Source: Bursaphelenchus xylophilus (taxonomy: Eukaryota; Nematoda; Chromadorea; Rhabditida; Aphelenchoididae). Taken from it: a stretch of DNA of 64,000 nucleotides. A program made the position numbers and the translations under genes. Under the pieces are notes generated by a model. That model saw only the letters and a list, made by a program, of their open reading frames with translations. It searched no databases and was not told where the DNA came from. Location: the NCBI GenBank assembly GCA_904066235.2, contig CAJFCV020000003.1:3410001-3474000 (forward strand), read 5' to 3'. Positions 23,273 through 50,516 of the stretch are shown here, in pieces; within the stretch, counting starts at the first letter, position 1; each line of letters opens with the position of its first letter.

Positions 23273-26265
<2,993 letters not shown>

Positions 26266-27330
26266 CCGCCTCTTCTCCTGATCTATCACACTTTTGATTC
26301 CATTATCCATTCAAAGCCAAAAAAATTTGTTGGGGTCTCCACGTGATCTTACTTTCAAAATCTACTTACAGTATTATTTTTTCTCGGTCTTCTCGCGAAA
26401 GGGTTGGTATTTTGTTGGTCTACTTACTATTTATGTGCAATTTGAGAGCTTCTTTGTGTTGCAAAAACATTCGTTGTGTAAAGTTTTGGTTGTTGTATAG
26501 ATTTATGAATTGAAAATAAATTTATGTAAATTTAGAAGCCTTTGAAGTGGTATTTTAAAAGAGCGGGTGAGTTGGATTAACTTGGAAATACAATGTTGTT
26601 GTCTATTACAAACTCTTCGCCTTTCCTAACTTGTTATTGGTTAGTCATTTAGGGAAGTTTTAAAGTAACACATAATACACTTTGTTAGCCATCTTCTCTT
26701 TAACGATAAACTGCTGATGGCGGTCAATTATAAACCCGTCATCTTTTGGAAAATACAATATTTCTAAGTTTCCCTAATTACCTAAAAACTAATCCGTTGG
26801 GACTTGTTTTGAAAGCACATCTTTGAGCTGGTCGAAGACTTTCTTTTCTGGCAACACCCGCATTTTTGGGATATTTCAACGACGTTGCAATACTTGGAAA
26901 TGTTTGAAAAAAGTTTTTTAAGCTGGGTGCTCGACTGACACAGGTTCAATTTATTCAAAATTAACAACATTGGTAGGACACTGCACCTCATTTTTTTCTG
27001 CCCATTACAATAATTTTTCCCTCCCCCGAGAAGCCGCAATTTCTCGGGTCGGCCCGGCCGCGAGCCAAATTGTAACGGTGCCAAAAAACATGAAAAAACA
27101 AGCTCTTTTTCAGAGACCATAGATCGTTTTCGCGAGTGTTTGTGTTTACGCGCATATTTCTAGATTTTCGAAAGTTGTTATTCCTTCCCTCTCCGAACGA
27201 CGAGGCCAAATAAGCCTCCGGTTTTAATCGAAGCGGACTTCGTTTGAGGGCGAAGATATTCTATGTAAATATTTTTATATTTTCCCTATAATCAAGTAAT
27301 TTTGCACTTTTTTTCAGATAATATTTCAAA
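26266..27330. other. Intergenic region between KH gene and SXP-like gene 1
   Basis: It holds the KH gene's 3' UTR with an AATAAA near 26516, then AT-rich sequence without recognisable coding. A T-rich acceptor (TTTTTTCAG at about 27318) precedes the next gene's start by 13 bases. Confidence 0.6.
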
Positions 27331-28017
27331 ATGATTCAGAGTCAGCTTCCCACTCAGACCCCGTTTATTCAAATCTACGACCGGCTGACCGAGTGTGAAA
27401 TTCGCGACCTTCATAAGGTTTTGGGTGAAAATAAGGATGCTCCAAGGCATGTGTTCAAACAAGAGGTTGACAAATTTGTCTCCAAATTAGATCCTGAATT
27501 CCAACGGGATTACAAGAGAATTGAAGAGGAAATGGAGAAATTGGAAATTAAAGAAAAAGAGGAGAAATCAAAGATTTTGAGTCATAACAGTCAAACTTCT
27601 TATGGAGAACTGGCCAAGGCTTTGAATGTGAGTTCGGAAAAATGAAATTAATTTACGTTGAATTTTCACTGTCATCCTTTTCTATCAAAAACGACGTTTT
27701 AGGATGACCCGTTGAGTGAATTACAGCAAATCCAACTAGTTCACAGGATCACGGAAAACATCGAACCGGAGATTATTCAAGAGCTCAAGTCTAGTGGCAT
27801 TGTCATCCCCAGGCGGGCGCACACTTGCGGGCAACCACTTTGCGGGCAACCAGTTTGCGGGCAGATTTTTTGCGGGCAGCCACTTTGCGGGCAGCCGACA
27901 TTTGCGGCCAGCACCGGCATTTGCGGGCAGCCTGGGACATTTGCGGGCAGGGTCGACAGTTGCGGGCAGCCTGGAAGATTTGCGGGCAGCCGACATTTGC
28001 GGGCAACCGACACCTGA
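27331..28017 (+). CDS. SXP/RAL-2-like (DUF148-type) protein, 3' end altered by transposon insertion
   Basis: Exon 1 (27331-27627) joins in phase to exon 2 (from 27703). An in-frame TAA just upstream of the ATG fixes the start, so no signal peptide is encoded, unlike secreted SXP/RAL-2 proteins. Residues 1-99 have the Lxx-E-hydrophobic helical pattern and a charged coil rich in Glu and Lys; the second part reads LSELQQIQLVHRITENIEPE and ends GIVIP. There a transposon (27813-28556) interrupts the frame, and reading continues into it as a Cys-rich tail with repeated CGQP until TGA at 28017 (about 203 aa). Downstream of the element the host frame resumes as SMPRS and stops at 28579-28581, so the uninterrupted protein was about 140 aa, close to the 139-aa paralog at 30019. 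Family assignment is tentative. Confidence 0.6.
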
Positions 28018-28556
28018 TTGTGAGGGTAACAGGGTGGACGTGGAAAAATTACTATGATATTTTGGAAATTTGCCGACATTTGCGGGCAGCCGACATTTGC
28101 GGGCAATCGGCACTTGAGGATAACAAGGTGGAGGTGGAAAAATTACTTCGATATTTTGGAAGTTTTCCGACATTTGCGGGCAGGCAATACTTGCGGGAAA
28201 CCGACATTTGCGGGCAACAGTTCCAAAAGTTCCTATACAGTCTGTGTGATTGTTTTTTCCTGTTGCCCGCAAATGTCGGCTGCCCGCAAGTGTCGGCTGC
28301 CCGCAAATGTCGGCAAATTTCCAAAATATCGCAGTAATTTTTCCACCTCCACCTTGTTATCCTCAGGTGCTGGTTGCCCGCAAATGTCGGCTGCCCGCAA
28401 GTGTCGGTTGCCCGCAAATGTCCTAGGCTGCCCGCAAATGTCTCAGCTGCCCGCAAATGTGACCCCCCAAATTTTGCCCGCAAAGTGGTTGCCCGCAAAA
28501 AATTTGCCCGCAAACTGGTTGCCCGCAAAGTGGTTGCCCGCAAGTGTCGCGACGCC
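27813..28556. mobile_element. 744-bp MULE-like inverted-repeat element with internal 17-bp repeat array
   Basis: The element is flanked by a perfect 9-bp direct duplication, CATCCCCAG (27804-27812 and 28557-28565), the length typical of Mutator-like transposons. Both ends start GCG and share about 60 bp of inverted repeat containing ACTTGCGGGCAACCACTTTG. The two arms are built from many copies of a unit like TTTGCGGGCAGCCGACA: forward from 27825 to about 28215, reversed from about 28262 to 28540. There is no transposase, so it is non-autonomous. It lies in the final codons of the SXP-like gene. Confidence 0.85.
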
Positions 28557-28581
28557 CATCCCCAGCATGCCGAGATCATAG

Positions 28582-30018
28582 TTATGCAATTCAGGGAAAT
28601 TCATTCCCGATATTCGAGTCTTCAATAACTTTTCTCTGTTATGCATTATAGAATTGTTTGTTAATTAACCTGTGCCATGTTGAAGAATAAATTTCCAACA
28701 GAACTTTGACTAATAATAACTTTAAACCCTAAAATTTTAATGTTCAATTTGTTTTATGTAATACCGTTTTTCTTTTGTCAAATTTTTTACGAAAATTGTA
28801 ATCTTCAACTAAAATATGTGTTGTGCTTTACGCATGCAGTGGAAATGCTCGAAATTTGACGTCCAAATTTTAATAAAACTTGGATCAAACTCCGACTTTA
28901 ATATAAGAGCTCTTAGAATCCTAAAACACGTTGCACTGGATGTTACTCACGTGGATGGTCAATAATCAACCAAATTCTGATTAAGCGTTTGAAAAGCTGT
29001 TAACAAAAAAACAATCCGATTAATTGTTTACCAATTTTCGAAATGGCCCACAGCGTTATTAAATCTAATAGTTTGGACTTTGTTGGTTCGCTGACAAGAA
29101 GGGAATTGTTATTATTTTCAAACGAATTTTTACTAGTTTGTCGGGCGAAGTCACTTCTTTTCTGCCGAAATATCATCCTTTGGCTCGGGAAATCAAGTTT
29201 TATAACAGACGAGGTAGGTATCTACTGGCAAGGAACTGAACTTTCTTTGTAAGAGATTACAATAAATGGGAAATGCCTTATCATAAACGTTTTCGACTAT
29301 TGTCGTTGGTCTTTTTGTCAATGCAATTTTTGCTTACAACGCATTCTCATTCGCCATCGGTCTTTGGTGCCTTAAAATTTAAGCTCGCAGCTTGCCCAGA
29401 TGGCCACGATATTGAACAAGCTTCTCAACGAGAAGAGTACGCTCAAGGCGGAGGGCGTTCATAGATAAAAGCGCACTTTGCCCATGTCTCTGCTCATTTT
29501 ACCTACAGAATTTTGAGTTTTGGTAGAAACGTTCCTCTCTAAGGTAAAAATCAGCCTGAAATAAATAAGTTATCCGAATAATAAAAATGTCGGCCATGAA
29601 CAGCTTTCGGACAAATAGTTTTTCTATATGGTGGGGGCTAGGAATTTCACGTATACCTGCGACAAAAATATGCCAAATTTTTGCCAAATTTCCTGGTCGT
29701 CGCATTCCTCTGTTGGCCTGCTTAGAATCTGTATGCAAGGTTGCGATAAATTAAAAAGGTCCAACTTGGGGCATTTTCCCAGAAGTCATTAAAAAATCCC
29801 TTCTAAAAAATTTAATGTTATTGTTTACCAATTTTTGGAATGCTCCCTAATCTTATTTTTTCGGACTTTGCTTCATTTTCGAACTATGAAGAATGGTTCT
29901 ATCCGGCAAGCTTTGGAATTTCACGGATCAAAATCTTTTCTCTGCTCTCATAAATCTTTTCAACAACCTCTTCGTTTTAGCCAAAGCCTAATTTTGATTT
30001 TTCAGATACAAGTTCACC
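28582..30018. other. Intergenic region between the two SXP-like genes
   Basis: An AATAAA near 28686 probably serves gene 1. The rest is AT-rich. From about 29400 to 29780 it contains a diverged copy of a repeat that also lies in the intron of the second gene. No exon is supported. Confidence 0.55.
29400..29780 (+). repeat. Dispersed repeat, copy A
   Basis: It shares ordered phrases with 30520-30870: GATATTGAAC..CTT, GAGAGTACGCT (here GAGTACGCTCAAGGCGGAG), a TGGTAGAAA phrase, and a CACTTGGGG-like end. It is diverged, with no open frame that matches between copies. Confidence 0.4.
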
Positions 30019-31033
30019 ATGTTCGAAGTTCATTGTCGTCTCCCCTCCAATTCACCGTTCCATGAAATCTACGAGCAACTGAACGAACGCGAACTCAGGG
30101 GTCTCTATTATTTATTCGAGGAGAAAAAGAAGGCTCCGAAATATGTGTACATGCAAGAAGTGCAGGATTTCATCTCCGGGCTCGATCCAAAAATTCAAGA
30201 GGAATTTCGACGATATAATGCAAAAATAGAGGAGTTGGAGAAAGAGAGGGAAGAACGGGCGAAACATTTGAGCCATGAGACGCAAGCTGTCTACAATGAC
30301 ATGGTCAAGATTTTGAGGGTAAGTGATGATGGTAAAATGAGGAAAACCGAACTTGTAGCCTTTGATTTGAAGTAGTTTTGTGACCAGAATCCAAAAAGCA
30401 TAGGATTTTCAAGATATTGCAAAGCAGTCATCGATTTTTTTAAATCTTTCAATACAAATTTTGCACAGATGTCGGTCATGAACTAAGCATCAATTCCTGA
30501 AAGTATTAGCCCGCGCTCTGCGATCGCCGTCGAGATATTGAACGATCTTTTCCGCCGAGAGAGTACGCTAAACGCGGAGAGCGGTCAGAGAGAAAAACAT
30601 TTTTTGATCATAACTTTGCTAGTTTCGTGCGGAAAAAATGATCTTTTGTGGAAAAAAACTCTCTATGGTAGAAATAAGCATGAAAGTTTTCGTGCCGGAG
30701 TTCGGCAGAAAGTGTCAAATTTTCGCCAACTTTCGATCTAAAAATCTCGGTTGTTTCTGCAAAGCGCGAGCTAGGATTCTCACATATATTTAAGAAAAAA
30801 TTATTCTGAATTTGTGCCAAGTTTCATCAAAATCTGAGCGTCGCACTTGGGGTACTTCCCTTGTGAGATCTGCGGATATTCTTACTGTCATCCGAAATTT
30901 GAACATTTTTCAGAACGACCAAATTAGCGAGGAAGAGCAAGTACAAAGCGTTCGGAAATATGCTGCACATCTTGAACCGGCAATCATTGAAGAACTAAAA
31001 TCTGCTGGCATTATTGTTCCCTGCGATGAATAA
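30019..31033 (+). CDS. SXP/RAL-2-like (DUF148-type) protein 2, intact paralog
   Basis: Two exons, 30019-30318 and 30914-31033, join in phase 0 to give 139 aa. The protein aligns along its length with the gene at 27331: SPFHEIYEQLNERELRGLYY, a Glu/Lys-rich coiled stretch (residues about 70-85), LSHETQAVYNDMVKIL, then EEEQVQSVRKYAAHLEPAIIEELKSAGIIVP and stop. It shares the intron position and phase with its paralog, so the pair arose by tandem duplication. No signal peptide is seen from this ATG, although the 13 bases between the acceptor and the ATG are open and an upstream coding exon cannot be excluded. Function is unknown; the family label is tentative. Confidence 0.65.
30520..30870 (+). 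repeat. Dispersed repeat, copy B, in the intron of SXP-like gene 2
   Basis: Matches the order of phrases in copy A (29400-29780). It includes TTTCTGCAAAGCGCG, which also occurs near 62686, and GCGTCGCACTTGGGG, similar to a phrase near 61299. This suggests an interspersed family in this genome. Confidence 0.4.
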
Positions 31034-32793
31034 CCAACCATTTCTCGTTTGATTTTCTTTATTTTTTCACTATTTATTTTTTGAATGCCTTGTAAACTAC
31101 AGTACATAAATGCCACTCACAAAAACTTTTTTGTCTGGTTTTTTCGAAAATCTCGAAAATTAATCTTCCAATTATCAATTGATCCAAGCAGCCGCAGCGC
31201 TTTACATTCTCGAGACGTTTCAAAGGTTTTGACGAATTTCTTTTCCGTTTAGCGTCGACCCGCTGATAATTCGGGTCAGATCGGACTTTTGCGCCATTTG
31301 GGAACGTCTTCGTGAATTTTCGGATAAAGCAGGCGCCACGGGAAGGGAGATAATATTATCGATACGTTCGGCGGGCTTGATCAAACTTTTTGGAGGGCAA
31401 AACTTTTGATTTTTTGTTGGCACAAAATTTGATTATTTGCCGAATTTCTAACAAGCTTCCTCTTTTAAGGCAATTTTCTCTTTTTTAATTAAATTTTCGA
31501 ATGTTTCATGCCATTTTTTCTATCACAGTAACTCCCATCCATTTTTAAAAACACTTTAAAATCTCCCACTTTTCCATAAGTCAGTTTTAAATTCGCCAAA
31601 ATCACCTCCAGACGCCCTTTATCATCAACGCAAGGGACTATAGTCGCCGGAGTGGCATTGCAATTATAACGGTAGGAAAGGTTTTCCTTTCCTTTCGCTT
31701 TTAACCGAAATCCCATCGACGTCGCTGTTTGATGTTGACGCGAGAATTCTTATCTCCTCGAGAGTGCGGTCTTGAATGGCGCGGGGATAAAACTGAAACC
31801 GGGCGATTTTGGGGGGCGCACCGAAAATTAAAATTATGATACGAAAGGTTGGAATGGGGATGAGTTTGACATGTTGGGGGCTAATTGGGAACTGCGTGAA
31901 AATTTGAGCTTGTGTTTTGCAGGGGAATGCTCAAGAGGCAACTTCGCGGTTTTATTAAAATTTTTTGGGCTTTTTGAACTTTATATCCAGGTCGACTTTT
32001 AACAACTAAAATTCTTAGCTTGTGCTTTAGGGATTCATCCAAAAATTGCTGGTTTTTTTGCTGATTAACGACAGCGATGAGTAAAATATGCTTGTTCCAG
32101 GAAAAGTAATCTTTGGTCATATGTATTATATATCTATGTGAATGCTCCGTAAAAATATTTGTTGGTAGAAATATATATTCTTTCCACGTAAATAAAGCAT
32201 AACGTATCGTATTTTACCGAGAACACTTCCAGATTTGTGCTTTTGGAAAGACCACACTTTAGGCATCAACGCAAGTATCGGTAATTGTCTCCTGCAAATC
32301 CGTTTTTCAAAGCTAACCGATCGTAAAATTGGTTGCTCCTTCAAAGTGTCAATTTTATCTTCTTCTTGTTTCTAAATATGTCAGTGTTCACGCTTTAGTG
32401 ATCATAAAATTTTTGTCGAGAGAACCCGCGATTCCAACGAGCTAACGATAAGCGAACTTCGACTCTTCCGTTCGTCGTTCGATTGTGTTATCCTTCACAT
32501 ATAAAATTTCAAAACTGATTCAACGTATTTTAAATACAAGCATTTTGTTTGTAATTATGTTTGTTTATTTATCGCACCCGCTACGTATTTTGTTCCGTTT
32601 TCTTTTTCCGGATTTGAAACCGATCCATCCGAGAAAAAAAGCCGCTGATAACCGACCCATTTTTTATCAACATAAAGCTTGTCGATCCTTAAGTAAACGT
32701 TTTCAAAACGCAGAGTAATTTCAACAGATTTTTTCCTGAATAAGACCGGCCTTTGTAAGAATATCGTATTTTAACCCAAAATTGCAGGTCACG
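31034..32793. other. Intergenic region upstream of the patched-related gene
   Basis: No coding exon supported. It contains CGTATTTTA-type motifs at 32208, 32524 and 32765. A 3' splice site (AAATTGCAG) ends at 32787, 7 bases before the next start codon, so a 5' UTR intron or spliced-leader site is likely. Confidence 0.55.
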
Positions 32794-35700
32794 ATGCCGG
32801 CTGAGGAACGCCGGGATGAAGATCCCCCGTCATCTCGGGCAGATACCGACCAGTCAAAGCGAATGTCCAGACAAATTGGAAGAGGGCACGATGACACATT
32901 ACCGGCTACACCGGGCTACAAGTCAGTGGACAAAGGAGGACCGGTAAGGAGTTGTAAAGTAGGATACGCAGAGTTGAAGATACTGTGATATTCGGCTTTA
33001 AATTTATCAAATTATACTCTAGAATTATGAAAACCTTGGATTTTATTATATGTACATCAATGTGATTTTTATTCAAGATTGCGCAGGCTTTTCTTACGCC
33101 TTGTTAAATCAAGTACGATGTCCTCTAGAGTCTAAATCCTTGCTTGACCTTCATGTATACTCATAGGTCAAAATATATTATACATTTTTTAAGGTTTTTT
33201 GGTACCTTATTTACTACTGTTCAGAAAAGGCATTCTAATCTTGTGCTTAGGGTTATATGCCTCATGATTACTAGATGTTTCACATGCCTGTTTCTAGGAG
33301 TCCCCCGGAAATGAATCGCCAGAAAGCGAAGACTCTTCTGAAATGCGAGTTGTCCCACGACAGCGATCGATGGCGGCAGCTATTCCTTATCATCGTTCTG
33401 AATTCGAAGTGCACAGTAAGTCAAACGTCAAAGATTTCATTCGTATTTTAAAATTCTTTAAACGTAATTCTAAAGCTGTTAAAGTGATATGCACGTATTT
33501 ATGGGAATCGTATTTTACCAAATCATTTTCAGCATATCAAGTTGCAACTTACCGAATCCACCTCTCGAAGTTTATTGAAGGAATGATCAAGCCATCGCTC
33601 TTTCACTTGGCCAAAACTGTCTCCAACAGATGCTTTTTATTTTTGACATTACCAATTTTTCTTCTTGGAGTTTCATTGATTGGCCCCATCTACTACAAAG
33701 ATCAGCTGCAGATCAGTGTCCCATTTCCGTCGTTTTTGAGTGGTCCTGATCCAACAGTAGCGGTGAGGTCGCTGAGATCGCAGGTGACAGTCCCATTTAA
33801 TTCGAGCAATCCAGAGTTTGATGCGCTAAAAAGAACAAGCTCTTCAGAGTTCGGGATTCTGTTGAGCACAAAGTAAGTTGTGTGGCTTTAGCCGTTTTAT
33901 GGAAGCCTACAATGTCGGAGCATATAAGGCGTTTGTGTGGTCGAAATTTAGTTTTATTAAGGTTGATTTTTGAGTAAAAAATGGTCTTGTGCCTTCGAAA
34001 TTTGCGTTAAATTACATAAGAGATTTTAAAGCCTTTTTTCATTCTTTCAACAAAATTTTAGTGAACAAAGTTAAGTTTTTTAAAACGGACTTTTTTACAA
34101 AGTGAAGCATGGCCCGGACATTGTTGCGGTGACCATCACCGAATTTCTTCAAATTTGGCTCATAGAACACCCACAGGGCATACATGAAAAGCGTCTAAGG
34201 TTTTTGCGAAATTTGCATTATTCCAGGATTACTGTAACATTTTGTGTTTTATAAAGCGGCCGTTGTGGTGGGCCGGGTGATGGCTCTATGAGTACAAAAC
34301 TTTCTGTGTGGCGGTTTTCGACCATGGCCAACATTTTCCTTACTGAAACATTTTTTGTATCTCTTCATCTTATGGTAGTACTGTAACCTTCAACATACCA
34401 TATCGATTACCGTTAAAAATTGGGAAAAGTGTAACCAGTTTTTAAGCTTGATTATAAAGGTTGGACACACTCTCCGTAAAATAAGACCAAAAAATCCAAA
34501 ATAAAAATATAAGTTTTTGAGATATGCGCGTTCAAAGTTGCTATGTTCGGGTACTGTAGGACCAAAATGGAGATGATGAATTCTCAAACGGTACCATTCG
34601 TTGCCACGCCTCACCCATTAATAGAGCAGCCTGAGAAAAATATTTTCTGATCAAAAAATAAATATTTGAGGCTTTATTTCAGGCTTTATACGATGGTTAC
34701 TGTAGTTTCTAACTTTTGTTAATTTCGCTAACCATTTTTTCCAGATAACGTATTTAGACTAGCTATCCCATTGAGAAATGTGTATACAACGTAAAAATAA
34801 AAAAATCAAGGTCGCAGTACCATCAATTCCTGAAATAAAGGGAGATTACGGTAGCCGTATCCGTTTTTTCGCTGTTTGGCCGCGGCATTCTTTGGAGCTG
34901 CAAGTGTAACCAGATTTGAGACTGGAAATTCACTCAGAATGGATAGATCAGTATTTGAGCAAAAAATAGCGAAAATAAAAATATAAGTTTTTGAGAAAAT
35001 CCGGGATTACGGTCATTTTAAGGGGTTTTTGGGCCGTTTGGCCGCGGCATTCTTTGGAGCTGCAAGTGTAACCAGATTTGGAAATGGAAATACACCCAGA
35101 ATGGATAGAGGAGTATTTTAGCAAAAAATAGCGAAAATAAAAATATAAGTTTTTGAGAAAATCCCGGATTACGGTCATTTTAGGGGGTTTTTGGGCCGTT
35201 TGGCCGCGGCATTCTTTGGAGCTGCTAGTGTAACCAGATTTGAGACTGGAAATTCACTCAGAATGGATAGATGAGTATTTGAGCAAAAAATAGCGAAAAT
35301 AAAAATATAAGTTTTTGAGAAAATCCCGGATTACGGTAATTTTAGGGGGTTTTTGGGCCGTTTGGCCGCGGCATTCTTTGGAGCTGCTAGTGTAACCAGA
35401 TTTGAGACTGGAAATTCACTCCGAATGGATAGTTGAGTATTTGAGCAAAAAATAGCGAAAATAAAAACATAAGTTTTTGAGAAAATCCGAAATTACGGTC
35501 ATTTTAGGGGATTTCCTGGCCGAAATTACCGTAATCCGGGATTTTCTCAAAAACTTATATTTTTATTTTCGCTATTTTTTTCTAAAATACTCCCCTGTAT
35601 ATTCTGAACAAATTTCCAGTCTCAAATCTGGTTACACTTGCAGCTCCAAAGAATGCCGCGGCCAAACGGCCCAAAAAACCCCTAAAATGACCGTAATCCC

Positions 35701-38700
35701 GGATTTTCTCAAAAACTTATATTTTTATTTTCGCTATTTTTTTCTAAAATACTCCCCTGTATATTCTGAACAAATTTCCAGTCTCAAATCTGGTTACACT
35801 TGCAGCTCCAAAGAATGCCGCGGCCAAACGGCCCAAAAACCCCCTAAAATGACCGTAATCCGGGATTTTCTCAAAAACTTATATTTTTATTTTCGCTATT
35901 TTTTGCTAAAATACTCCTCTATCCATTCTGGGTGTATTTCCATTTCCAAATCTGGTTACACTTGCAGCTCCAAAGAATGCCGCGGCCAAACGGCCCAAAA
36001 ACCCCTTAAAATGACCGTAATCCGGGATTTTCTCAAAAACTTATATTTTTATTTTCGCTATTTTTTGCTCAAATACTCATCTATCCATTCTGAGTGAATT
36101 TCCAGTCTCAAATCTGGTTACACTTGCAGCTCCAAAGAATGCCGCGGCCAAACAGCGAAAAAAACGGATACGGCTACCGTAATCTCCCTTTATTTCAGGA
36201 ATTGATGGTACTGCGACCTTGATTTTTTTATTTTTACGTTGTATACACATTTCTCAATGGGATAGCTAGTCTAAATACGTTATCTGGAAAAAATGGTTAG
36301 CGAAATTAACAAAAGTTAGAAACTACAGTAACCATCGTATAAAGCCTGAAATAAAGCCTCAAATATTTATTTTTTGATCAGAAAATATTTTTCTCAGGCT
36401 GCTCTATTAATGGGTGAGGCGTGGCAACGAATGGTACCGTTTGAGAATTCATCATCTCCATTTTGGTCCTACAGTACCCGAACATAGCAACTTTGAACGC
36501 GCATATCTCAAAAACTTATATTTTTATTTTGGATTTTTTTGTCTTATTTTACGGAGAGTGTGTCCAACCTTTATAATCAAGCTTAAAAACTGGTTACACT
36601 CCTTCCAATTTTTAACGGTAATCGATATGGTATGTTGAAGGTTACAGTACTACCATAAGATGAAGAGATACAAAAAATGTTTTAGTGAGGAAAATGTTGG
36701 CCATGGTCGAAAACTGCCACACAGAAAGTTTTGTACTCATAGAGCCATCACCCGGCCCACCACAACGGCAGCTTTATAAAACACAAAATGTTACAGTAAT
36801 CCCGGACTGGTTGAAATTTCGCGAAACCCTTCTTCGCTTTTCATCAACATGCTCAGGCCCTTCTATTGGCCAAGTTTCAAGAAATTTGGTGATGGTCGTT
36901 GCAACAATGTCCGGGCCCCGTGGAGGGAAGCTTCAGTTTGTAAAAAACTCTCTTTTAAATACGCCGGAGGTACATGTACATATAAATATATTTTACTGTC
37001 AGGTAATTACTTAAATCGCACATAGCCTTCCAGGCTCTCAAAAAATATTAAAAACAAAATCGATTACACTAATGTACCACCTGTGGCATCGAGTGCCTCA
37101 CTCACTTAAAAATCTTCTTTCAGGAACCCCTTTACAAATATCATTTCCAATTCTTCTCTGTCAACCTATGATCGGCTCAACTATATGATTGCGAACTTGA
37201 CTGTGGCTCATACCGTGAAGAGCTTGACGGTAAGTAATTTTTTCGTTGATAAAGCAAACTTCTTTGTCGAATTTTTTCTACAGCGTATTTTAAAATGCCA
37301 ACTTTTTAGTGGGACGACATTTGTCGAGAGAACTGTGATTCCGACAACTTGCTGATGAGAAATCTCCGAAATGGCAGAGCTTTGCTGAAATGGCCACAAT
37401 CGATCGTATTTGATGAGGAAAACAAACAAAAGAGGTTCTCGGTGGCCAATGTTTTTGGAGGTGAGTTGCGAATAAAATCTTGTAGTTTTGTCCAAATCTG
37501 CACGGTGATTTTAAGTTTGTAAATAGTTAAGATTAAGTCAATTATCTTCTTTTTTCCAGGGGTTGAAGCTGATGGAGACAACAATATCAACAAAGCCAAT
37601 ACGATTCAAATGAACCTCAAGCTCAAGGAGGATTTGAAAACTGAAACTTATGACCAGTTTGATGCCCGGCTAAAAAGTTTGGTATGATAATTCCAATTGT
37701 TTGAAACCGCGTATTTTACATCGAAAAATCACTCCGTTTCTCGATTTTAATGACAAATATTTTGCAGCTAACCAACCGATTTTCCGACAAGGAAATGAGA
37801 GTTTACTATTGGTCAATGTACAATTATATCAAGGAGGTTGTCCAGATGTTGAATGCCACTCATTATCGACTGTTTCCTTTTGCGGCGCTACTTGTGATCT
37901 TCTGCGTGTTGGTCAGCTTTCGAATGGATTCTTATCGGGTAAGACTGCTGCCTAAAGATATTATTTATTATTTCTTTGCCGTTGACTTGGCGGAAAGCCC
38001 AAATTTTACTTCGTCCTAAATTGAACAAGATCCCATATTACAGTGGGGGACCTGATCCAGTGGCAAAAAACCTACCATTTTGCGAATGGGAAGTGTCAAA
38101 AATGTGGCAAAATTCTTCCCTCTCCAAGTGCAAAAAACTCCTTATTTCAAAAGCACGCCCGCTCTTTTTGTGAGGGATAATGCGCGCCCTTCAAAACGAT
38201 TTTTTTTCACTTGGAGAGGGAAACATTTTGCCACATTTTTGATACTTCCCATTTGCAAAATGGTACGTTTTTTAACACTGGATCAGGTCCCCCACTGTAC
38301 CACCTCTCTTCTGACTGCATGCACTTTCAGACCCGTCCATTTGTTGGCCTCCAGACCGGTGTTGTGCTTGTCCTCAGTTCGTTCGTCGGATATGCCGTTC
38401 AAATCGCGGGTGCTGGCCAGATCAACGCCTTGGTCTTCCCAGCCGTCTTTGTCATCAGTGCTTGCGGAGCGTTGTTATTCTTTTCTTTGGGGCAATCTTG
38501 GAATCGATACTCCTTGGCAGCTCTTCATCCCGCCGAGAAATTGGCTTTCATCATTTCGTGGGATGGCCCATGCACCTTGTTGACGCTGCTTTGTGTTATC
38601 GCGGGATCAAGTATGTTATCATAAATTTAAAGACAAATATTCAAGCACAAACACAGCACGTATTATACCAGTCATAATCGATTTTTCCAGTTATTGTCGC

Positions 38701-41700
38701 TCTGTTTGCCCCATTGACTCTGATCCAAGCGAGTTTCTTTACCATTGCTGCCGGTTTGACCGCAGTTCTGATCTTTGGAATGCTCTACATGGCAGTTTGT
38801 TGGTTTTGGTCGGGCCGTCGCGAAGCTGAAGGCTTGAAATGGTGGCAACTCGGCAAGAAAGGCGATCAACAGTTCAACCGTTAGTTAAAAAAACTTCTAC
38901 GTTCAACAAAAGTCTACTAAAAACTCAAATAACCTTTCTATATTTTTCAGAAAAATGCGTCGTTGATTACGATCCGTCAACAGCCGCAATGCTTCATGAA
39001 AAATTGGCTGACTTGAAGCCCAATTTCGCCTCTTCGGTTGGAAAATTCTCTTCCTCATATGGAATGAGGGCTATTTCGCTTTGCATTTGCGTTGTCTTTG
39101 TAACATTCGCTGTGCTCGGATTAGAACACATTAATGTCCAAATGAAAGAGGAGGACTTTGTTCAGAGCAACTCAACTTCAGCTCAATATTTGAGCAAGTA
39201 CAAGACCGCTTTTCCGTAAGTCTTGTTTAAAAAAGTTATCAACCATTTTCAGGAAATACGAAGAGTACGTCGAGCTCATTATCGACAGCCCAATTGACTA
39301 CTATGACAAGAGTCGGCGAGCAGAAATCATGAAGTTGATGCGTCAACAACTTGAAGACGGCTACGTCGATCGCATTGTCAGTTGGATCCCTGATTTCGAG
39401 GACTTCCAAAGAAATACCGTCTATGATGTTAATCCAGACACAATTATTGATGTTATCAAGTTCTTGTTCTTGGAGTCCGACCATTATCATCGATATGCCA
39501 GTGATATCGTCATTGACAAGAGGAGAACGCAAATTTTGAGATCCCGGTCGTATTTGGAGCTGACCGAAAAGGGTGTTAAAGAGAGGCAGACGTTGGTGAA
39601 GAATATCTTGGAGAAGGCTGAACAGTTTGATCTTCCTGTTACAGTAAGAACACCATTGGCTTTCAGCCTGCATCATGATGTTCAGGTAGGGATTTAGGGA
39701 CATAAGACCGATATTTCTGCACCCATAAAGTCTCGAAAATTTTGAAAATACTTGGCACAAATACCCATCAATTTCCTCCAAGATATGTAGGCTTTTTAGC
39801 ACGCACTATCTACATAGATACGACCCAGTCCCTACAGTCTAAAAATACCAATTTTGTGCTTATTTTTCCTTCTGTCTAAAGTGGATTATATAAATTCATA
39901 TAAGGCAGTCTCTTCATCACGAAGCTCACGGCATGGAGAGTCTTTTTCCCTGATCCACCCTTTCCGTTTACAACAAAGTAATTTTCAGAAACCGCTGAAT
40001 TATTCAGCTATATCTGTCAGATGTTGTCATACTTGCTAGAATCTTTTTATTTACCGCAAAATGAACATGCAAGATTTGATAAAAAATTTTTTCGTTTTTG
40101 GTTCCCCCTAGGGATCAAAGCTCGCTTCCTTGAAGATTTTGACGACTTCGTTAAAATGAGGCCGTTTCCACTGTCCCAATTTATTTTTTTATTAACCACC
40201 AACCGCTGGTGCTCGTATTTTACCATTTCAGGTGCTCAACCGTTTCCTCCTCGCCCTCATCATCGAGATTTTGTCCATCACCGCCCTGAGTTTCATCCTC
40301 ATTCTGCAGCCATCAATCTCTCTGTGCCTTCTCGTCAATTGCTCGATAATTTCCTTCGGAATCATTGGGTATTCCTCGTCGCTAGGAATCCCTCTAAATG
40401 CACCGACATTAACAACCTTGCTCATGGGAAATGTCTACATCGCCGTGATGACAATTCATTTCTGCTATCAATTCGTGAATACTGGCAGTCGTCAGCAAGC
40501 AAGTATTGATCGAATTTGTTACGCCTTCCAATGTAGTCTGGCGCCCAATGTGTTTTCTGCCATCATTTTGGGAGCTTTCTTTTTCCCATTGCCTGTGGCG
40601 GTTGATGCTCCCGTCCTGATGCACGTATGGAAAATATTGATTGCTGTGGCGGTTCTATCCGTACTTTCGATGATTTGTGTGCTTCCATTGTAAGGCTTTA
40701 TCATATAGTATTACAGTCATATAAAATTTCGTATTTTACACTATGTTTTCCTATGTTTCAGGTTGATGATTACTCTCACCGAGACAATCGCCAAATGTTT
40801 TGGGAAGTTCCACAAAATTTGCGACAAAAATGGTGTCTTTGGAGTGGAGCATCCTTCCGAGAGCATCTACTATGTTCAAGGAAGTCGGCAGCTGAAGATG
40901 CTTGGCTATGGCCACGGTGGAATGCTGACGATAGATCGGCAAACTCGACAGATGATTTTGAACCCCAACAGACTTCCACAACCTCCTCCTGACTACACAA
41001 TGGGAGGAAATATGATTGTCGCCGATTTGTATCCGCGTAGAGCCGAGAGGTATCGGATTAGAGAGGCTGGCAGCGAGGTAAAAATTATGCATTTGATATA
41101 AGCTTGAAATACAGTGGGGGACCTGATTCAATGGCAAAAAACGTACCATTTTGCATCCCAGAAGTACCAAAAATGTGGCAAAATGCTGCCCTCTCCATGT
41201 GAAAAAAAACTCCGATTTCAAAGGCGCGCCCGCTCTTTTTGTGCGGGAAAGAGCGCACACTTCAAAACGAAGTTTTTCCACTTGGAGGAGGAGGCATTTT
41301 GCCACATTTTTCGATACTTCCCGGATGCAAAATGGCACGTTCTTTGCCACTGGATCAGGTCCGTCACTGTAGACGCTTAATTTCGATTCGTTGACCTTAT
41401 AAAAAGCAAATATTTTGTTTCAGACTGAAAGCCGGCCAGCTAGCACCAGAATTCCGCAAAGCCAAGAGTCCTCCAGAAATCATACCCCCAGGCACGAACG
41501 TCGCAATCGCTATCAAAGACCGATCGAGGAGGATGGCGAAGAGCAGATTTACGAAGAACCTGACACTCCGGTAAGTCCACAATCAATCTTGCATCACAAA
41601 ATCCACTCTCAGCCCCCTCATCGTCATCGTTCGTATCACACTTCGCCTCAGGCCAGATACATCCCTCGTGATTCGCAGGGCTTTCGCGTGGAATACCCTC

Positions 41701-44041: not shown

Positions 44042-47000
44042 ATGAGCTCGTATACATCCTCATCCTCGGGCTATCGCCGCCGGCCTGTGGTCGGTTATGA
44101 TCCAGAAGAACGTGCGTTGGATCGCATTACTCGTGATGTAAGTGATTTGATGTTTTTTGTTGGTTTTTAGAGGATTCATCGGATTCTGGATGTTGTACAT
44201 GTTGCCAAGAGCGATTTGTTTTGAAAATCTTCGATGGGAACGATAGTTTTTGTATTATCGGCCTTACAACGGATGACTAGCGCTGTTTTCATACTCATAT
44301 TCACTTAGTCTTTTGATTCTGCTGGTTAAATTGAGTTTTCTGATTAAATTTTCCGTAGAAATCCTTAGGGACTTAGTCGTCAAAGTAAAACACTAAAATC
44401 ACTCTGAAAATGAAAGTTTCTGGTACTTGAGTTAATCTAATTTCAGGCCGAAGATCGGATGAGCAAAAAGCGCGAGGCTCGAGATGAAGCACGGCAATAT
44501 CGTCTAGAACAACTTGAGAAGCAGATCCGAGCCACAGATGAGGCCAATTATCTTGCAGTGGTAAGTTTTGTCCGTCCAAAATTGTCCGCTTTGATGTCAA
44601 AAGGTCGCAAATGTAATGTCCATTTACGTTCACAGCCTACTTTCTCTTGTCTACGTCTTTTTTTTCGTTTTCTCGTTAACTTTCGGCGAAAAACTAATAG
44701 ATTTGCGGTATTTTAATTATTCTTGCGAGATTTTTGTAGAATGGAAACGCGAAGGCGACCAAGACGAGGTCTCAATTAATCAAGGAGAAGGATGAATGCG
44801 AAAAGGAAGTGCTTAAAGTGAGTTTTATGCGTCGATTTGGGCTTGTTGCTGTTTTATGTGTTTAGGGACCGAGAATAAGATAAATTTATGTTGTTTTGGC
44901 GAGTTTGAGGGAATATTATGTGGGGAGTGGTTGTTTATTGCTCCAAATGAGGCTTAGAGGTATTTGAGCGGGATATTTTTGTTGATTTTAGAGGAAAATT
45001 TCGGCTTTGGATCAAGTGTAATATAAATTTTTCTTAGATTTATGAGTTTTTGGTCTTTTTTGGTCAGAAAAGTCAAAAAAATTATGGTTTATAAAAAAAG
45101 TTTATAAAAAGGGACTAAAATGGCATTTAATTGGGCTGAGACACACTTTCTAACAATAATTCTGATTTTTTTATTCTAGGATAAGGTCAGTGAGCTGGAA
45201 AACAAATTCGAACGAGCCATGATTCTGTATTCTCAAGTAGACAATGAGAAATCCACACTATTATACGAGATTGACCTCCTAAAAGACGATCTAGAGGAGA
45301 AAGATGAGCTCGTTTTTCAAGCAAAACGAGAGGCCAAAAACTTGGGAACGGAGGTGAAATTGCTCCAGAAGACGATAGAAGGCCTACAACTAACCCAGCA
45401 ACAACTCAAAACCGAGATTGAAAAGCGAGACGAACTGATCAGAGAAAACGGGTTGTGTTTGGTGGATCAGCTGGAAGAAGAGGATCTGGTGAGCTGCAGC
45501 ACGGCTTCAACAGAATTCCAACCGTAAGTGGGGGTGCTGGCTGAGAGGATAGTCAAGTTTCTTTATGAGGAAAGTGGACATAAGATCAAAATTTGGTGTT
45601 ATAAAGGGGATAGGGACGTTTAGTCCTCCTATTTTATCGCAAAATTTCAATTTGAATGGTTGGCGAAGATTTTCACAATTTAATTTTATTGTAAACTGTT
45701 TCGTTTTGGATTTCATTACTCGTTTAGTTGAGATACAACAACAGTGGGGGACCTGATCCAGTGGCAAAAAATGTACAATTTTGCATCCGGGAAGGATCAA
45801 AAATGTGGCAAAATGCTTCCCTCTCCAAGTGAAAAAAACTCCGATTTCAAAAGCTCTTTTTGTGAGGGAAATGGCGCGCCCTTCAAAACGAAGTTTTTTT
45901 ACTTGTAGAGGGAGGCATTTTGCCACATTTTTGTTCCTTCCCGGATGCAAAATGGTACATTTTTTGCCACTGGATCAGGTCCCCCACTGTAATTAATGCA
46001 GCTTTTTGAATTTTGTTAGACAAACTTTGGCTTAATGTATTAGGGTGAACCAAATGTTTTTGCCGTTTTTTCATGAAAACTTTAAACATAATTTTACAAC
46101 AAATGAAAACCAGTTAAGTTTCAAAGTAAAGGCCATTTGAATCTATGGCTTGAACCCATCTATAGGCAAGTTGTTCGATCCCGCTGCGGTACCACTCCTT
46201 TTTCTTAGAAGCGAAAAACTCGCGGCATCCGTCTTCGACATCGTCCAGATCATTGAAGCTACGACCACGCAAAAAGTGTGCCATGGAGCGGAAAAGGTGA
46301 TAGTCGTATGCCACAATGTCCAGACTATTTGCTGGATGTGAAAGAAGTTCAATGGCGTCGAGAGTTTTGATCTTTTCCTTCGTTTGTTTGGCGGTGCGAG
46401 GTTTTGCGCTGTCTTGTTGCAGGGGTACGCGGGTTCGATTGATCAAATCGGGATATTTTTTGCCAATCGCTGCATACATTCGATCGAGTGGAGCGTAGTA
46501 GAGGTCTGCGTCGCTAGTCCGACCATTCGGAACCAACTCGAAGTGAATTACGCCTTCAAAATTGTTTTTTAAGACGTCTTGCCCTCGAGGTCCGTGTTGC
46601 CGTCGTTGAATCGTTTGAACCAATCGCGCAGTACGATCTGAGACCACATTGTAGCCTTCAACTTCGCTTATCTTCTTTACTGCTGCAGTTGCGTTGAAGC
46701 CTTGTTTTCGGTAATAACGTAAAAAAACACGAATTTCGGATTTTTCCATGTTTTTTCTACAGGTTAAAAGATTTTAAATAAAAGACCAATTAAAAATTTT
46801 AATATATATTATGATAAAGCAGCTCAAGACCTTTAAAAATATATATAATACGTTCATCTAAAAGTCTTTATTTTGTACAAAAACAATTGGACAAAAAGAC
46901 ACCTAAAAAACGGCAAAAACTTTTGGTTCACCCTAATATAAGTAATGTTGAGTTCTCAAAACAAATATTTTTAACATTTTTGCTGTCCAAATTACTTTGT

Positions 47001-50000
47001 AATAGTTGAAAAGAAAATTTTGTGAAGCGTTAAGAGCGATATCCTTTCTCCCTTGAAATTTTCAGATATTATTCATGACAAATTTAATGATTTTTGATAT
47101 TAAACTTTACATACTCGAGCTGAAAATTTTCCAAACGCAGTAAAATTTTTGCGGTTTTTTTTATGAATCTAATTCTCTGAGGCCTTAAAAATTACAATTT
47201 ACAAATTAAAAATATATTTTCAGCCGACCGAACTCCATGTTACTATCCCTAAATACGATATCACAAATAGAAAAGGCCATCCCTGGGCAACAAAATCTGG
47301 ATGAGAAGCTCAAGAAGATGGTTGATATGGTAAGTGAACACAATTTTTATTTCTTTTGCGAAGCCTTTTTACAATTGCTATATTGTTTTAGGTATAAAAT
47401 TTCATTTTTTATGGTTAATTGTCATTTTGACCCTTTTTCAGAACAAAAAGCTACGTCAACAAGTTGAAGAGACCGAACAGATCCTCTATGCCCGAAGAAC
47501 CCGTCAATCCGACCATCAAAATAATATTGTAAATGGCGCTTCGATGGTGGAGATGGAGCGGGAAGCAGCAAAAACTTCCGAACTTCGGTTGCGAATTCAA
47601 GAAATGGAAAGAGAGCAGGCAACACGGCAGGGAAATGTAAGATTTTGAGGGATTTTTAACAGATTTTGTCATGATTTTAATTATTCTTGAGAGCAAAAAT
47701 TTTGTTTTAGTATTCACGAGTGGAGAGCCAAATGAATCGGTACAAATCACAGGCAGAACAGTCGGAAAAAGAGTGTACCGAACTCAAATCGCAGAATCGA
47801 CAACTCAAAAAAGAGGTAGGTGAATAAAAAAAATAAAAAAAAAATTTACTGGCGCTGTGTTTTTCACAGTACTAAAAATGTTATATCGGATTGTAAATTT
47901 TAAAAAAATTGAAGACCAAGAAATTTTTTCCAGTTGCGCGAGAAAGAGAACTCTTTGGAGGAGGCGAAAGAAACCAACGCCCATCTCCAGGCTCGGTTGG
48001 AAAAACTCAGAACAATGCGAAGGGTATAGCACAACTGCTGGCACTGTCTAAAAAGTTAAGCTCACAAGTTAACAAAATTTTGATTTTTTTCGTCTTGGTT
48101 CCTCCTGGTCTTTCTATTAGTTTTGATTTTTTTGGAGGTTGTCTTCTAAAATACGGAAAGTTTTGGGGCTAAAAATTGCTTTTCTTTAATGTAATAGTAA
48201 TTTTTTAAAATGCGAAATTGTAGATTTTGCTAGAAAATTGAAGAAAAGTACCTAAAATTGCCGTATTTTTAGCTATTTTTTGTTATTTTCGAATTTTTTA
48301 AAAATTTTCTAACATTTTTTCTTATCTTTTTTTTTGATATCTCAAACTCCTCTCACCTTCGAATGGTACTCTAAAATCCCGTCCAAATTTTTATTCAAGG
48401 ATAATATAATATTGTTCAAAACAAATCTAACAGGTTTTGTCACAGTTATTCAATAATAATTTTCATAATTTTTTCCAATATTGTAAATATTTTTCAGTCA
48501 TAATTTTGGTTGTATTTTCTTATTTTGTTGTCCTAAATTTTTTGAAATTAATTTTTAGCACTTTTTAAAACATACAGTAGTTGTCAACGAATTGTCAATT
48601 TTTTTATTTCGTGTGTAACTTCACTCAGACTCAACAGAATTTGATGAGACCAAGAGTGTTTAAGAGGCTGGGAGACATGCTTTAACCCTGTAAAATTTTT
48701 TTATTTCATATCGGCCACAGGCGTGGCAAAAATTTTAAAACAAATTTTTTTGGTGGGCAACGAATTGTCAATTTTTACATTTTGATGCATAAGATCTCAA
48801 TAAACCAGCATAAAAAGTCTGGAATGGAGGGTAATCAGTTGCTAGCAATCATAGTACAGCATACAACTGGTTTCAGCCATTTGTATAATCTCCTTTGCTT
48901 TCTATAGGTCGGGCACTTGGGGGTAGACCATGTACAATATAATGTCAGCCTGGGGGTTTCCAAGGCCGAAATTATTTTATATTCCGGTTTTTTATGGGTG
49001 TTTACATCTTTCTACGATAGGGAAAGTTAAAAAATTACAGCTAACAGGTTGCACTTGCGCCTTGTTACCTCAATTATGTTAATCATGGCCTTTCATACTG
49101 TTGGTCAGAGTATCAAAAAATCAAAAATGTCGCGCATTAAGATCGTTGGAGAAACCTTCTATGTTTGAGAACAAACTACACTAAAAGACAGATATTCAGT
49201 GCCTTTTACATGTCATTACCAGTACTCACGGAAGAGGTATGTAGATGGAAATATTTGGATTTACATGAATTTTCACGTCGGGTTTGCAACTCCCAGAAAA
49301 AATTATATTTCTTCAAGCCTGCGACTTCCAAAATATTTTATTTTTGTATTTAGAGATTTTTATAAGCATTAAAAATATTAGTTAAACGTAGAAGACGCGC
49401 AATAAAATTATTAATATACTCACCACCTTAGTGTGGCACAAGAATTAATTGGACCGTCAGAATCTCACCCGGAAATTTCAGGGCGTTGAGACAGGTAATG
49501 AAATAATTTGTAGAATGTCGTTAGTTTGGCCGTAAAGAAGGATTAAATGCACCTATGCCCCCAGTCGGCAAGAAAATTATCGATTTTTGGGCGTAACACA
49601 GAGTTCAGATGACCAAAAATAATATTATCTGACGAATGTTTGACCCGTAGCCCCTCCAAGTTGTAATCCGGTGCGAGTTCGTTAAATATAAGCAATAATG
49701 TTCCATTAAAAACCGGAATACAAAATAATTTCGGCCTTGGAAACCCCCAGGCTGACATTATATTGTACATGGTCTACCCCCAAGTGCCCGACCTATAGAA
49801 CGCAAAGGAGATTATACAAATGGCTGAAACCAGTTGTATGCTGTACTATGATTGCTAGCAACTGATTACCCTCCATTCCAGTCTTTTTATGCTGGTTTAT
49901 TGAGATCTTATGCATCAAAATGTAAAAATTGACAATTCGTTGCCCACCAAAAAAATTTGTTTTAATATTTTTGCCACGCCTGTGGCCGATATGAAATAAA

Positions 50001-50516
50001 ACAATTTTACAGGGTTAAAGCATGTATCCCAGCCTCTTAAACACTCTTGGTCTCATCAAATTCTGTTGAGTCTGAGTGAAGTTACACACGAAATAAAAAA
50101 ATTGACAATTCGTTGACAACTACTGTATATAAAAAATAAAAAGACAGAAAAGTATGAATGGCTTCTTATAAAATAAGACATTAAAAATGAAATGTTGCCA
50201 AGGAGAATATAAATCTTGCCAGGCAAGTTTTCTTGAGCCGCTCTTTTTTTGTTTGTAAAGGTCTTTGTTTTTTGTAATGGAATTTTGTTTTTTTCTGGGA
50301 ACCCGACTACATAATGTTGTCATTTTTCTCGAATTTTTTTCTTATTTCTTTGCCCCTCATCATTATTTTGCTTCGAAATGAATCAGACGTTTTTGGATTC
50401 CTTTTCTTATTTGCAAGTGTAATTAGTGTTTTATTTTTTGTCAGCCATGTGAAGAAATCTCAGATGTGGAAAAGAAGGTCGTAGAAGTGGTCCAAGTGAA
50501 CCCACCAGGATGTTAA
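44042..50516 (+). CDS. LRRFIP-like coiled-coil protein (Flightless-interacting family)
   Basis: Exons 44042-44137, 44447-44560, 44740-44817, 45180-45523, 47224-47329, 47442-47636, 47711-47815, 47934-48023 and 50445-50516 join in phase to give 399 aa. If the 48024 donor is not used, the frame stops at 48029, giving 377 aa. After a Ser/Tyr/Arg-rich start ([14 protein letters not shown]) comes [18 protein letters not shown] and [20 protein letters not shown], the N-terminal signature of LRRFIP1/2. The rest is long alpha-helical coiled coil with many Glu, Lys and Gln (residues about 70-185 and 235-375). LRRFIPs bind Flightless-I and modulate actin and Toll/Wnt-type signalling; this function is inferred from the family. 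Intron 4 carries two transposons and the last intron a third. Confidence 0.78.
45742..45989. mobile_element. MITE copy 3 (same family)
   Basis: 248-bp element with the CAGTGGGGGACCTGATCCAG terminus and an intact inverse at the right. The right flank is TA; the left flank reads AA, so one side of the target duplication has mutated. It lies in intron 4 of the LRRFIP-like gene, 50 bp from a mariner. Confidence 0.9.
46040..46936 (-). mobile_element. Internally deleted mariner element
   Basis: 897-bp element with terminal inverted repeats beginning TTAGGGTGAACCAAA and flanked by TA on both sides (46038-46039 and 46937-46938). It is shorter than the roughly 1.3 kb of an intact mariner because the middle of the transposase gene is missing. 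It lies antisense in intron 4 of the LRRFIP-like gene. Confidence 0.9.
46114..46749 (-). CDS. Shortened mariner transposase, open frame of 211 aa
   Basis: The frame is uninterrupted. Residues 1-45 are the first helix-turn-helix of mariner ([18 protein letters not shown], then [15 protein letters not shown]). The sequence then jumps directly to the part before the second catalytic Asp ([28 protein letters not shown]). It continues through the third Asp ([16 protein letters not shown]) to a normal C-terminus ([17 protein letters not shown]). The segment with the second DNA-binding helices and the first catalytic Asp is absent, so it should be catalytically dead but could still bind termini. It may have arisen as an internal deletion. 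Confidence 0.8.
   Translation of the reverse strand: MEKSEIRVFLRYYRKQGFNATAAVKKISEVEGYNVVSDRTARLVQTIQRRQHGPRGQDVLKNNFEGVIHFELVPNGRTSDADLYYAPLDRMYAAIGKKYPDLINRTRVPLQQDSAKPRTAKQTKEKIKTLDAIELLSHPANSLDIVAYDYHLFRSMAHFLRGRSFNDLDDVEDGCREFFASKKKEWYRSGIEQLAYRWVQAIDSNGLYFET
48575..50125. mobile_element. Tc-like element with terminal inverted repeats of about 430 bp
   Basis: The ends read CAGTAGTTGTCAACGAATTG and its inverse, flanked by TA on both sides (48573-48574 and 50126-50127). The inverted repeats run from 48575 to about 49000 and from about 49700 to 50125, nearly identical. The CAGT start, TA duplication and very long terminal repeats fit a Tc3-type Tc1/mariner element. The 700-bp middle has no recognisable transposase, so the copy is non-autonomous. 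It lies in the last intron of the LRRFIP-like gene. Confidence 0.85.
50445..50516 (+). CDS. Distal terminal exon of the LRRFIP-like gene
   Basis: A 24-codon phase-0 exon ([20 protein letters not shown] ... stop) follows a strong acceptor (TTTTTTGTCAG). It fits the phase-0 exon ending at 48023, whose donor reads AGG then GTATAG. It is separated from the body of the gene by 2.4 kb, mostly the Tc-like element. If unused, the protein ends two codons after 48023. The coil-like, charged composition favours real coding; transcript support was not available. Confidence 0.55.
   Translation, partial: PCEEISDVEKKVVEVVQVNPPGC

What the first reader, a model, noticed from the sequence alone, without database searches (positions are those of the whole stretch)
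27804..28565. Inverted-repeat transposon with a perfect 9-bp target duplication in the last codons of a gene
CATCCCCAG flanks the 744-bp element on both sides. The host frame before it ends ...GIVIP and resumes after it as SMPRS-stop. The intact paralog at 30019 ends at the same place (GIIVPCDE-stop), so the boundary is confirmed twice. A 9-bp duplication points to the Mutator superfamily. The insertion replaces the last five residues with a Cys-rich CGQP-repeat tail of about 67 residues, an example of a transposon providing new protein sequence.
Basis: partly seen in the sequence, partly recalled or inferred. Interest (0 to 1): 0.75.

Follow-up and report, generated by a model that had tools for sequence, protein, structure and literature searches.

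The report
Foldback transposon in a gene's end
A short, protein-less jumping gene, one of many close copies in the pine wood nematode genome, has landed in the last codons of a small gene, whose predicted protein now ends in 68 residues read from the transposon; the insertion is real but of a known kind.

Summary
CATCCCCAG flanks a foldback element, yet in 29 of 30 fetched copies the element starts one base earlier (GGCGGGCGC...). 26 of the 30 have an exact 8-bp target duplication, 1 has nine, 1 seven, 2 none. The window's element is 27812-28556 (745 bp) with duplication CATCCCCA; the ninth base matches by chance, as in 15 of 44 copies with 8-bp duplications. The 9-bp argument for Mutator therefore fails. 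The species is Bursaphelenchus xylophilus: a 203-aa UniRef protein is 100% identical, tail included. The genome holds 244 right ends and a ~396-bp sister form with the same right end. No autonomous partner was found, though not all ends were read. GG termini with 8/9-bp duplications fit Merlin; composite tandem-repeat ends fit Tm1-like Mutator/Foldback elements, and a MULE of that design exists in this genome. The 68-aa tail is generic element sequence: 25 of 30 copies carry the same frame and stop. A second gene model carries such a tail too. No expression data or formal selection test were available.

The parts
27812..28556 (+). Non-autonomous foldback-type element, 745 bp, starting GGCGGGCGCA and ending TCGCGACGCC
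   Evidence: Borders set by 30 copies in the genome; first-reader borders were 27813-28556
27804..27811 (+). Left copy of the 8-bp target duplication CATCCCCA
28557..28564 (+). Right copy of the 8-bp target duplication CATCCCCA (the following G at 28565 is a chance ninth match)
27812..27820 (+). Left outermost motif GGCGGGCGC, different from the right one
   Evidence: 114 exact matches of the 19-bp left end in the genome
28548..28556 (-). Right outermost motif, GGCGTCGCG on the minus strand
   Evidence: 244 matches of the 19-bp right end with up to 2 mismatches (control pattern: 1)
27821..27893 (+). Outer inverted-repeat arm of 15-bp units (TTTGCGGGCAACCAC type)
   Evidence: I3, 97% complementary to 28475-28547; period 15
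28475..28547 (-). Outer inverted-repeat arm, partner of 27821-27893
28073..28220 (+). Inner inverted-repeat arm with 17-bp units (TTTGCGGGCAGCCGACA type)
   Evidence: I1, 92% complementary to 28260-28407
28260..28407 (-). Inner inverted-repeat arm, partner of 28073-28220
27331..27627 (+). Host gene, first coding exon (99 codons)
   Evidence: exon borders predicted from GT/AG; the resulting protein equals the public P0002
27703..28017 (+). Host gene, last coding exon as predicted: 36 native codons, then 68 codons (27811-28014) of which all but the first base lie in the element, stop TGA 28015-28017
   Evidence: P0002 identical over all 203 residues
30019..31033 (+). Uninterrupted paralog (exons about 30019-30318 and 30914-31033, my prediction), 44% identical, ends GIIVPCDE
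   Evidence: 43% for the first exon

Best explanation
A non-autonomous, foldback-type miniature DNA transposon (745 bp; two different 9-bp outermost motifs, then inverted arms made of 15-17-bp tandem units) was pasted by a DDE transposase acting in trans into the last codons of a small two-exon gene. The staggered cut was 8 bp. The predicted translation now runs into the element for 68 codons before a stop. Shown: the borders, the 8-bp duplication, the copy number, the low divergence among copies and the reading frame. Inferred: the trans-acting transposase, of a class with GG termini and 8-9-bp duplications (Merlin somewhat ahead of Mutator/Phantom), with the tandem units as its binding sites; and that the tail is a passive by-product, with most of the hairpin lying in the 3' part of any transcript.
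For: The first look gave 244 candidates in the own genome, of which 40 were scored and all 40 matched; the 39 others are 91-97% identical and lie on contigs C1-C6. 244 right ends with up to 2 mismatches; 114 exact left ends. 26 of 30 copies have exact 8-bp duplications at the same borders, 1 nine, 1 seven, 2 none. Of 52 further loci 31 gave both ends: 18 eight, 4 nine, 9 without a perfect one, five of these with one mismatch in eight; one of the nine, L045, has an 8-bp one at another right end. The 30 copies lie a median 1.7% from their consensus, this one 1.3%. A ~396-bp sister form with the same right end, a near-identical left end, a unique middle and mostly 8-bp, sometimes 9-bp duplications ties the foldback form to ordinary MITEs. 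Fold energy -579 kcal/mol against a mean of -281 for 20 shuffles. Terminal 5'-GG and 8- or 9-bp duplications are published Merlin hallmarks (PMC8101967, passages).
Against: No autonomous partner was found, so the enzyme is a guess. The genome searches returned 3 MULE, 3 IS1595/Merlin and 4 hAT loci. Nine of these ten were read with kilobases around them; eight contain no match to the element's end core within 3 mismatches, and the ninth (hAT, L034) only a truncated copy of the same MITE whose end lies 7.6 kb away. The tenth (hAT, C5:9107218) was not read. The unpaired ends on C5, C6 and part of C3 and C4 were not examined. Five of 61 copies have 9-bp and 11 no perfect duplication. Transcription of the host gene was not tested.
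Confidence: 0.82

Rival explanations
1. It is a Mutator/Phantom-type foldback element, as in Meloidogyne Tm1, whose transposase in this lineage usually makes 8-bp instead of 9-bp duplications.
For: Same architecture as Tm1: asymmetric outermost motifs outside the inverted repeat, arms of variable numbers of ~14-bp tandem units, many MITE-like copies, duplications of 8-10 bp (PMC3169594; abstract, passages, section 9). In this genome a 4,007-bp element (L080, C6:5795915-5799921) has a MULE match (34.7 bits in the genome search; 27.3 bits, just under the 27.6 cut-off, by hmmscan of one of its frames), inverted ends of 441 aligned bases at 94% whose outer part is 6.5 copies of a 15-bp unit, GG termini and a 9-bp duplication AAAAATTCT.
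Against: Modal duplication is 8, not 9 (44 of 61 against 5 of 61). L080 shows no match to this family's end or unit motifs within 3 mismatches. L080's A/T-rich duplication and its termini rest on a single copy and were chosen to fit each other.
Confidence: 0.37
2. It is a Merlin-type (IS1595-like) non-autonomous element with tandem-repeat ends.
For: GG termini and 8/9-bp duplications match the published definition, and Merlin families with highly imperfect ends and internal tandem repeats are described (PMC8101967, abstract and passages). PF12762 sequences exist here, one as a 368-aa open frame.
Against: None of the three PF12762 loci carries this family's end core within 3 mismatches. No convincing inverted ends span them: L075 only weak pairs (E 0.16 or worse), L076 none spanning, L077 low-complexity T-rich pairs and one GG-starting candidate with an 8-bp repeat but only 9 of 16 matching bases.
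Confidence: 0.43
3. The tail has become functional: a transposon-derived, Cys-rich C-terminus kept by selection.
For: The frame is intact and the public gene model includes it. The tail is 1 of 204 bases off consensus, the rest 9 of 541. A sub-threshold match of residues 140-167 to a high-sulfur keratin family (19.9 bits, cut-off 27) reflects the Cys-rich repeat.
Against: The numbers are small and no formal test was made; the same frame and stop are open in 25 of 30 copies. The six frames entering from the two ends are more open than in shuffles anyway (mean 95 codons; 7 of 1000 shuffles reach it). No relative outside this species was returned, though these searches also missed the paralog.
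Confidence: 0.06
4. hAT or P element derivative (both make 8-bp duplications; recalled).
For: 8-bp duplications; position 2 is T in 26 of 44, as in hAT targets (recalled).
Against: Termini GG, and some 9-bp duplications; position 7 shows no clear A preference (16 of 44). P-type PF21788 and KDZ PF18758: no match, but neither rang in any control genome, so absence is not shown.
Confidence: 0.1

Closest known systems
Tm1 Mutator/Foldback family of Meloidogyne (PMC3169594)
   Same: Asymmetric 7-bp outermost motifs, arms of variable numbers of ~14-bp tandem units, MITE-like copies, length variation
   Different: Published duplications 8-10 bp, most often 9; motif sequences (CGGTTAA, CCTACCC, CGATTCAGTATCCGC) unlike GGCGGGCGC, GGCGTCGCG, TTTGCGGGCAGCC; Tm1 has a Phantom-type transposase, this family none found
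Merlin superfamily (PMC8101967)
   Same: Terminal 5'-GG, 8- or 9-bp duplications, reported cases with imperfect ends and internal tandem repeats
   Different: No Merlin transposase linked to these ends here
4,007-bp MULE at L080 in the same genome
   Same: Outer part of each inverted end is a 15-bp tandem array; GG termini; different outermost bases at the two ends
   Different: 9-bp duplication, encodes a MULE-type transposase, other unit sequence (GGGTGATGCAAAGTC)
In-frame palindromic/MITE insertions in bacterial genes (Rickettsia palindromic elements; recalled, only a review listing seen)
   Same: A hairpin repeat read as protein sequence in a host gene
   Different: Eukaryotic transposon with target duplication; the host frame is replaced at its end, not resumed

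Membership tests
Non-autonomous inverted-repeat DNA transposon (MITE / foldback) | Multiple dispersed copies with common borders | tested here: met
Non-autonomous inverted-repeat DNA transposon (MITE / foldback) | Target duplication of near-constant length | tested here: met
   8 bp in 44 of 61 copies with both ends, 9 in 5, 7 in 1, none perfect in 11
Non-autonomous inverted-repeat DNA transposon (MITE / foldback) | Arms built of short tandem units, variable in length | tested here: met
   57 pairs of ends 301-845 bp apart
Non-autonomous inverted-repeat DNA transposon (MITE / foldback) | No transposase inside | tested here: met
   The 30 copies are 727-769 bp of repeats; open frames are repeat translations
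Mutator / Tm1-type foldback | Duplication typically 9 bp | tested here: not met
   26 of 30 eight, 1 of 30 nine; 18 of 31 eight, 4 of 31 nine
Mutator / Tm1-type foldback | Asymmetric outer motifs plus ~14-15-bp tandem units | tested here: met
   PMC3169594 section 9
Mutator / Tm1-type foldback | Autonomous relative with MULE transposase and the same ends | tested here: inconclusive
   3 MULE loci read with about 4-5 kb around; none has these ends; not every end in the genome was read
Merlin | Terminal 5'-GG and 8- or 9-bp duplication | tested here: met
   definition from PMC8101967
Merlin | Autonomous relative with DDE_Tnp_IS1595 and the same ends | tested here: inconclusive
   3 loci read with about 3.5 kb around; none has these ends; not every end in the genome was read
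hAT | 8-bp duplication with nTnnnnAn bias and CA/TA termini (recalled) | tested here: not met
   8 bp met, position 2 T in 26 of 44, position 7 A only 16 of 44, termini GG
P element | P-type transposase in the genome | tested here: inconclusive
   PF21788 no match, no control rang

The most novel reading that the evidence does not exclude
A transposon family whose 15-bp end unit has no stop codon in any of its six frames, so that insertions into coding sequence tend to add pentapeptide-repeat tails instead of stopping translation at once; two B. xylophilus gene models (the window's gene and P0003) carry the same RRAHTCGQP start of a tail, and one or both are made as protein and tolerated or used.
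Probability: 0.13. Interest if true: 0.55.

Novelty: new member of a known kind. Interest (0 to 1): 0.3.

Why it matters
It adds a fairly young, high-copy foldback/MITE family with an 8-bp duplication to a plant-parasitic nematode, and shows side by side a plain ~396-bp MITE form and a tandem-expanded foldback form with the same ends: a handle on how foldback elements arise. It also warns that public protein models of this species contain transposon-read tails, and that a single locus can mislead about duplication length by one base, and so about superfamily.

Tried and rejected
Autonomous partner: families MULE, IS1595, hAT, P (TNP-like) and KDZ were searched in the own genome. One hAT locus lay 7.6 kb from a right end (C3:6567622), but that end belongs to a truncated copy of the same MITE. 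Pairing of ends used 100 of 244 right ends and 74 of 114 left ends (of the 100 listed left ends the 26 on C5 were dropped, because the right-end list stopped in C4): 57 pairs, 60 unpaired. Of the 60, 41 were fetched with about 1 kb inward in 40 loci, 5 lay in loci already or separately held (L005, L020, L023, L027, L034), 14 were not read. Of the 40 loci 29 gave an opposite end within 1.2 kb; the other 11 align to the foldback form (6) or the sister form (5) well beyond the end motif, so I saw no long element among them. Twelve further loci found through the sister form were fetched and their ends examined. A MULE fragment of L080 matched only L032, L033, L080 and L081, and the Merlin-type frame of L076 only L075-L077, among all loci held.

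P0003: its copy is L045 (C1, left end 11915034; 828 bp; 8-bp duplication ATTCTATC; frame KFY-RRAHTCGQP). One search had scored L045 as without a duplication because it took an inner right end. P0003 looks like a loose gene model, so I do not count it as proof of a second protein.

Empty site in another isolate or species: three protein searches gave only P0002 and P0003; the paralog at 30019 was not returned either, so they say little about absence. The public label 'DUF148' of P0002 was not reproduced by Pfam (E up to 1). Rfam, gathering threshold, 26000-31500: none. Phage collection: none. Six other inverted repeats of the window: no 7-10-bp duplication within 25 bases of the borders tried.

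Full report
What is there. The window belongs to a 78.25-Mb genome in 8 contigs. A 203-aa protein predicted from the window is 100% identical over its whole length to a UniRef protein of Bursaphelenchus xylophilus, so the species is the pine wood nematode. The reported repeat CATCCCCAG is present at both places. Between the copies lies a dense foldback structure of short tandem units in two orientations that folds at -579 kcal/mol against a mean of -281 for 20 shuffles.

Borders. A DNA search of the own genome scored 40 of 244 candidates; all 40 matched, the 39 others at 91-97% identity, a few over part of the length. Thirty came back with flanks. In 29 of 30 the element begins with the G that stands at window position 27812, and all 30 end like the window's copy at 28556. 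With those borders 26 of 30 have a perfect 8-bp duplication, one 9, one 7, two none. Among the 44 copies with 8-bp duplications, the next base on the right equals the element's first base in 15; the window's copy is one of these. The element is therefore 745 bp with CATCCCCA duplicated, and the '9 bp' is a one-base chance extension.

The family. Right ends with up to 2 mismatches: 244; exact left ends: 114. Pairing 100 right with 74 left ends gave 57 elements of 301-845 bp, one of them with two right-type ends. Of 60 unpaired ends 41 were fetched and 5 more were in other loci; 14 were not read. The 40 fetched loci are copies of the foldback form or of a ~396-bp form with the same right end, a near-identical left end (GGCGGGCCC), a unique middle and 8- or 9-bp duplications. 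Pattern searches for two inner stretches of that form gave 42 and 43 places. The foldback form looks like this MITE with its end units multiplied; the direction is my inference. The 30 foldback copies are a median 1.7% from their consensus, the window's copy 1.3%.

The enzyme. I found none in the copies read, and of ten transposase loci found, nine were read and none is bounded by these ends. Two known kinds fit in part. Merlin: 5'-GG termini and 8- or 9-bp duplications (PMC8101967, abstract and passages). Mutator/Foldback Tm1 of Meloidogyne: asymmetric outer motifs and ~14-bp tandem units, 8-10-bp duplications, usually 9 (PMC3169594; abstract, passages and section 9). A 4,007-bp MULE in this genome (L080) has the same design with other sequences and a 9-bp duplication, seen in one copy. 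I rate Merlin slightly ahead on duplication length, Mutator on architecture.

The gene. Two coding exons (27331-27627, 27703-) give 135 native residues and then 68 from the element. The uninterrupted paralog at 30019 is 44% identical and ends three residues after the aligned P. Besides these two, the genome search gave four weak matches of 27-31% identity. No Pfam family is above its cut-off for the host gene or the paralog's first exon; the label DUF148 comes from UniRef. The tail is the family's common sequence: 25 of 30 copies have the same frame and stop, and the window's copy differs from consensus at 1 of 204 bases in the tail and 9 of 541 outside it; I made no formal selection test. The 15-bp unit TTTGCGGGCAACCAC has no stop in any of six frames (read directly), and the element's six entering frames are more open than in shuffles (81, 174, 67, 37, 167, 43 codons; the mean is reached by 7 of 1000 shuffles), so read-through tails are expected when it lands in exons. 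A second gene model, P0003, shows such a tail at C1. Nothing shows that either protein is made. The nearest AATAAA lies downstream of the element at 28686, so a transcript would probably carry the whole hairpin, a possible RNA-silencing trigger (inference).

In print. Searches of the held library for Bursaphelenchus with transposable-element, terminal-inverted-repeat, DNA-transposon, Mutator or miniature-inverted-repeat terms and for foldback elements in nematodes listed no title or abstract start describing this family; listings only were seen except for the two papers named.

Verdict. Real, correctly spotted from sequence alone, off by one base in the detail on which the superfamily call rested, and of a known kind.

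Noticed in passing
window 34111-36917: Large inverted repeat: 759-nt arms 95% complementary, starting GGCCCGGACATTG, with four-copy 162-bp tandem arrays in mirror orientation in the middle; another foldback-like element, no 7-10-bp duplication found near the borders.
   Followed up: partly
window 48572-50128: Inverted repeat with 426-nt arms 98% complementary, 705 nt apart, ends ATACAGTAGTTG...; likely a recent DNA transposon.
   Followed up: no
window 38039-38299, about 41110-41371, 45741-45991: Three related ~260-bp hairpins with TACAGTGGGGGACCTGATCC at or near their ends, 82-89% alike over about 100 bases; look like a MITE family with TA-type ends.
   Followed up: no
L080 2416-6422 (C6:5795915-5799921): A 4,007-bp MULE with 441-bp inverted ends whose outer part is a 15-bp tandem array and with a 9-bp duplication AAAAATTCT; a relative at L081 has an 85% identical transposase stretch.
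   Followed up: partly
L076 3455-4561 (C4): A 368-aa open frame with an IS1595/Merlin-type transposase domain but no inverted repeat spanning it in the 7.7 kb read; possibly a domesticated gene.
   Followed up: partly
L075 4534-7392 (C4): A 952-aa frame that reads like a protein-primed DNA polymerase (by eye, recalled), near a Merlin-type fragment; perhaps part of a Maverick-like element.
   Followed up: no
L045 (C1:11914970-11916040): A second copy, 828 bp with 8-bp duplication ATTCTATC, is read in the same phase in the NCBI gene model P0003.
   Followed up: yes
target duplications of the family: First base is T in only 4 of 44 and second base is T in 26 of 44 eight-bp duplications, read from the GGCGGGCGC end: an orientation-dependent target bias.
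   Followed up: no
window 53204-56271: Pairs of ~73-76% alike direct copies about 1.8-2 kb apart over several hundred bases in all: probably a tandem gene duplication.
   Followed up: no
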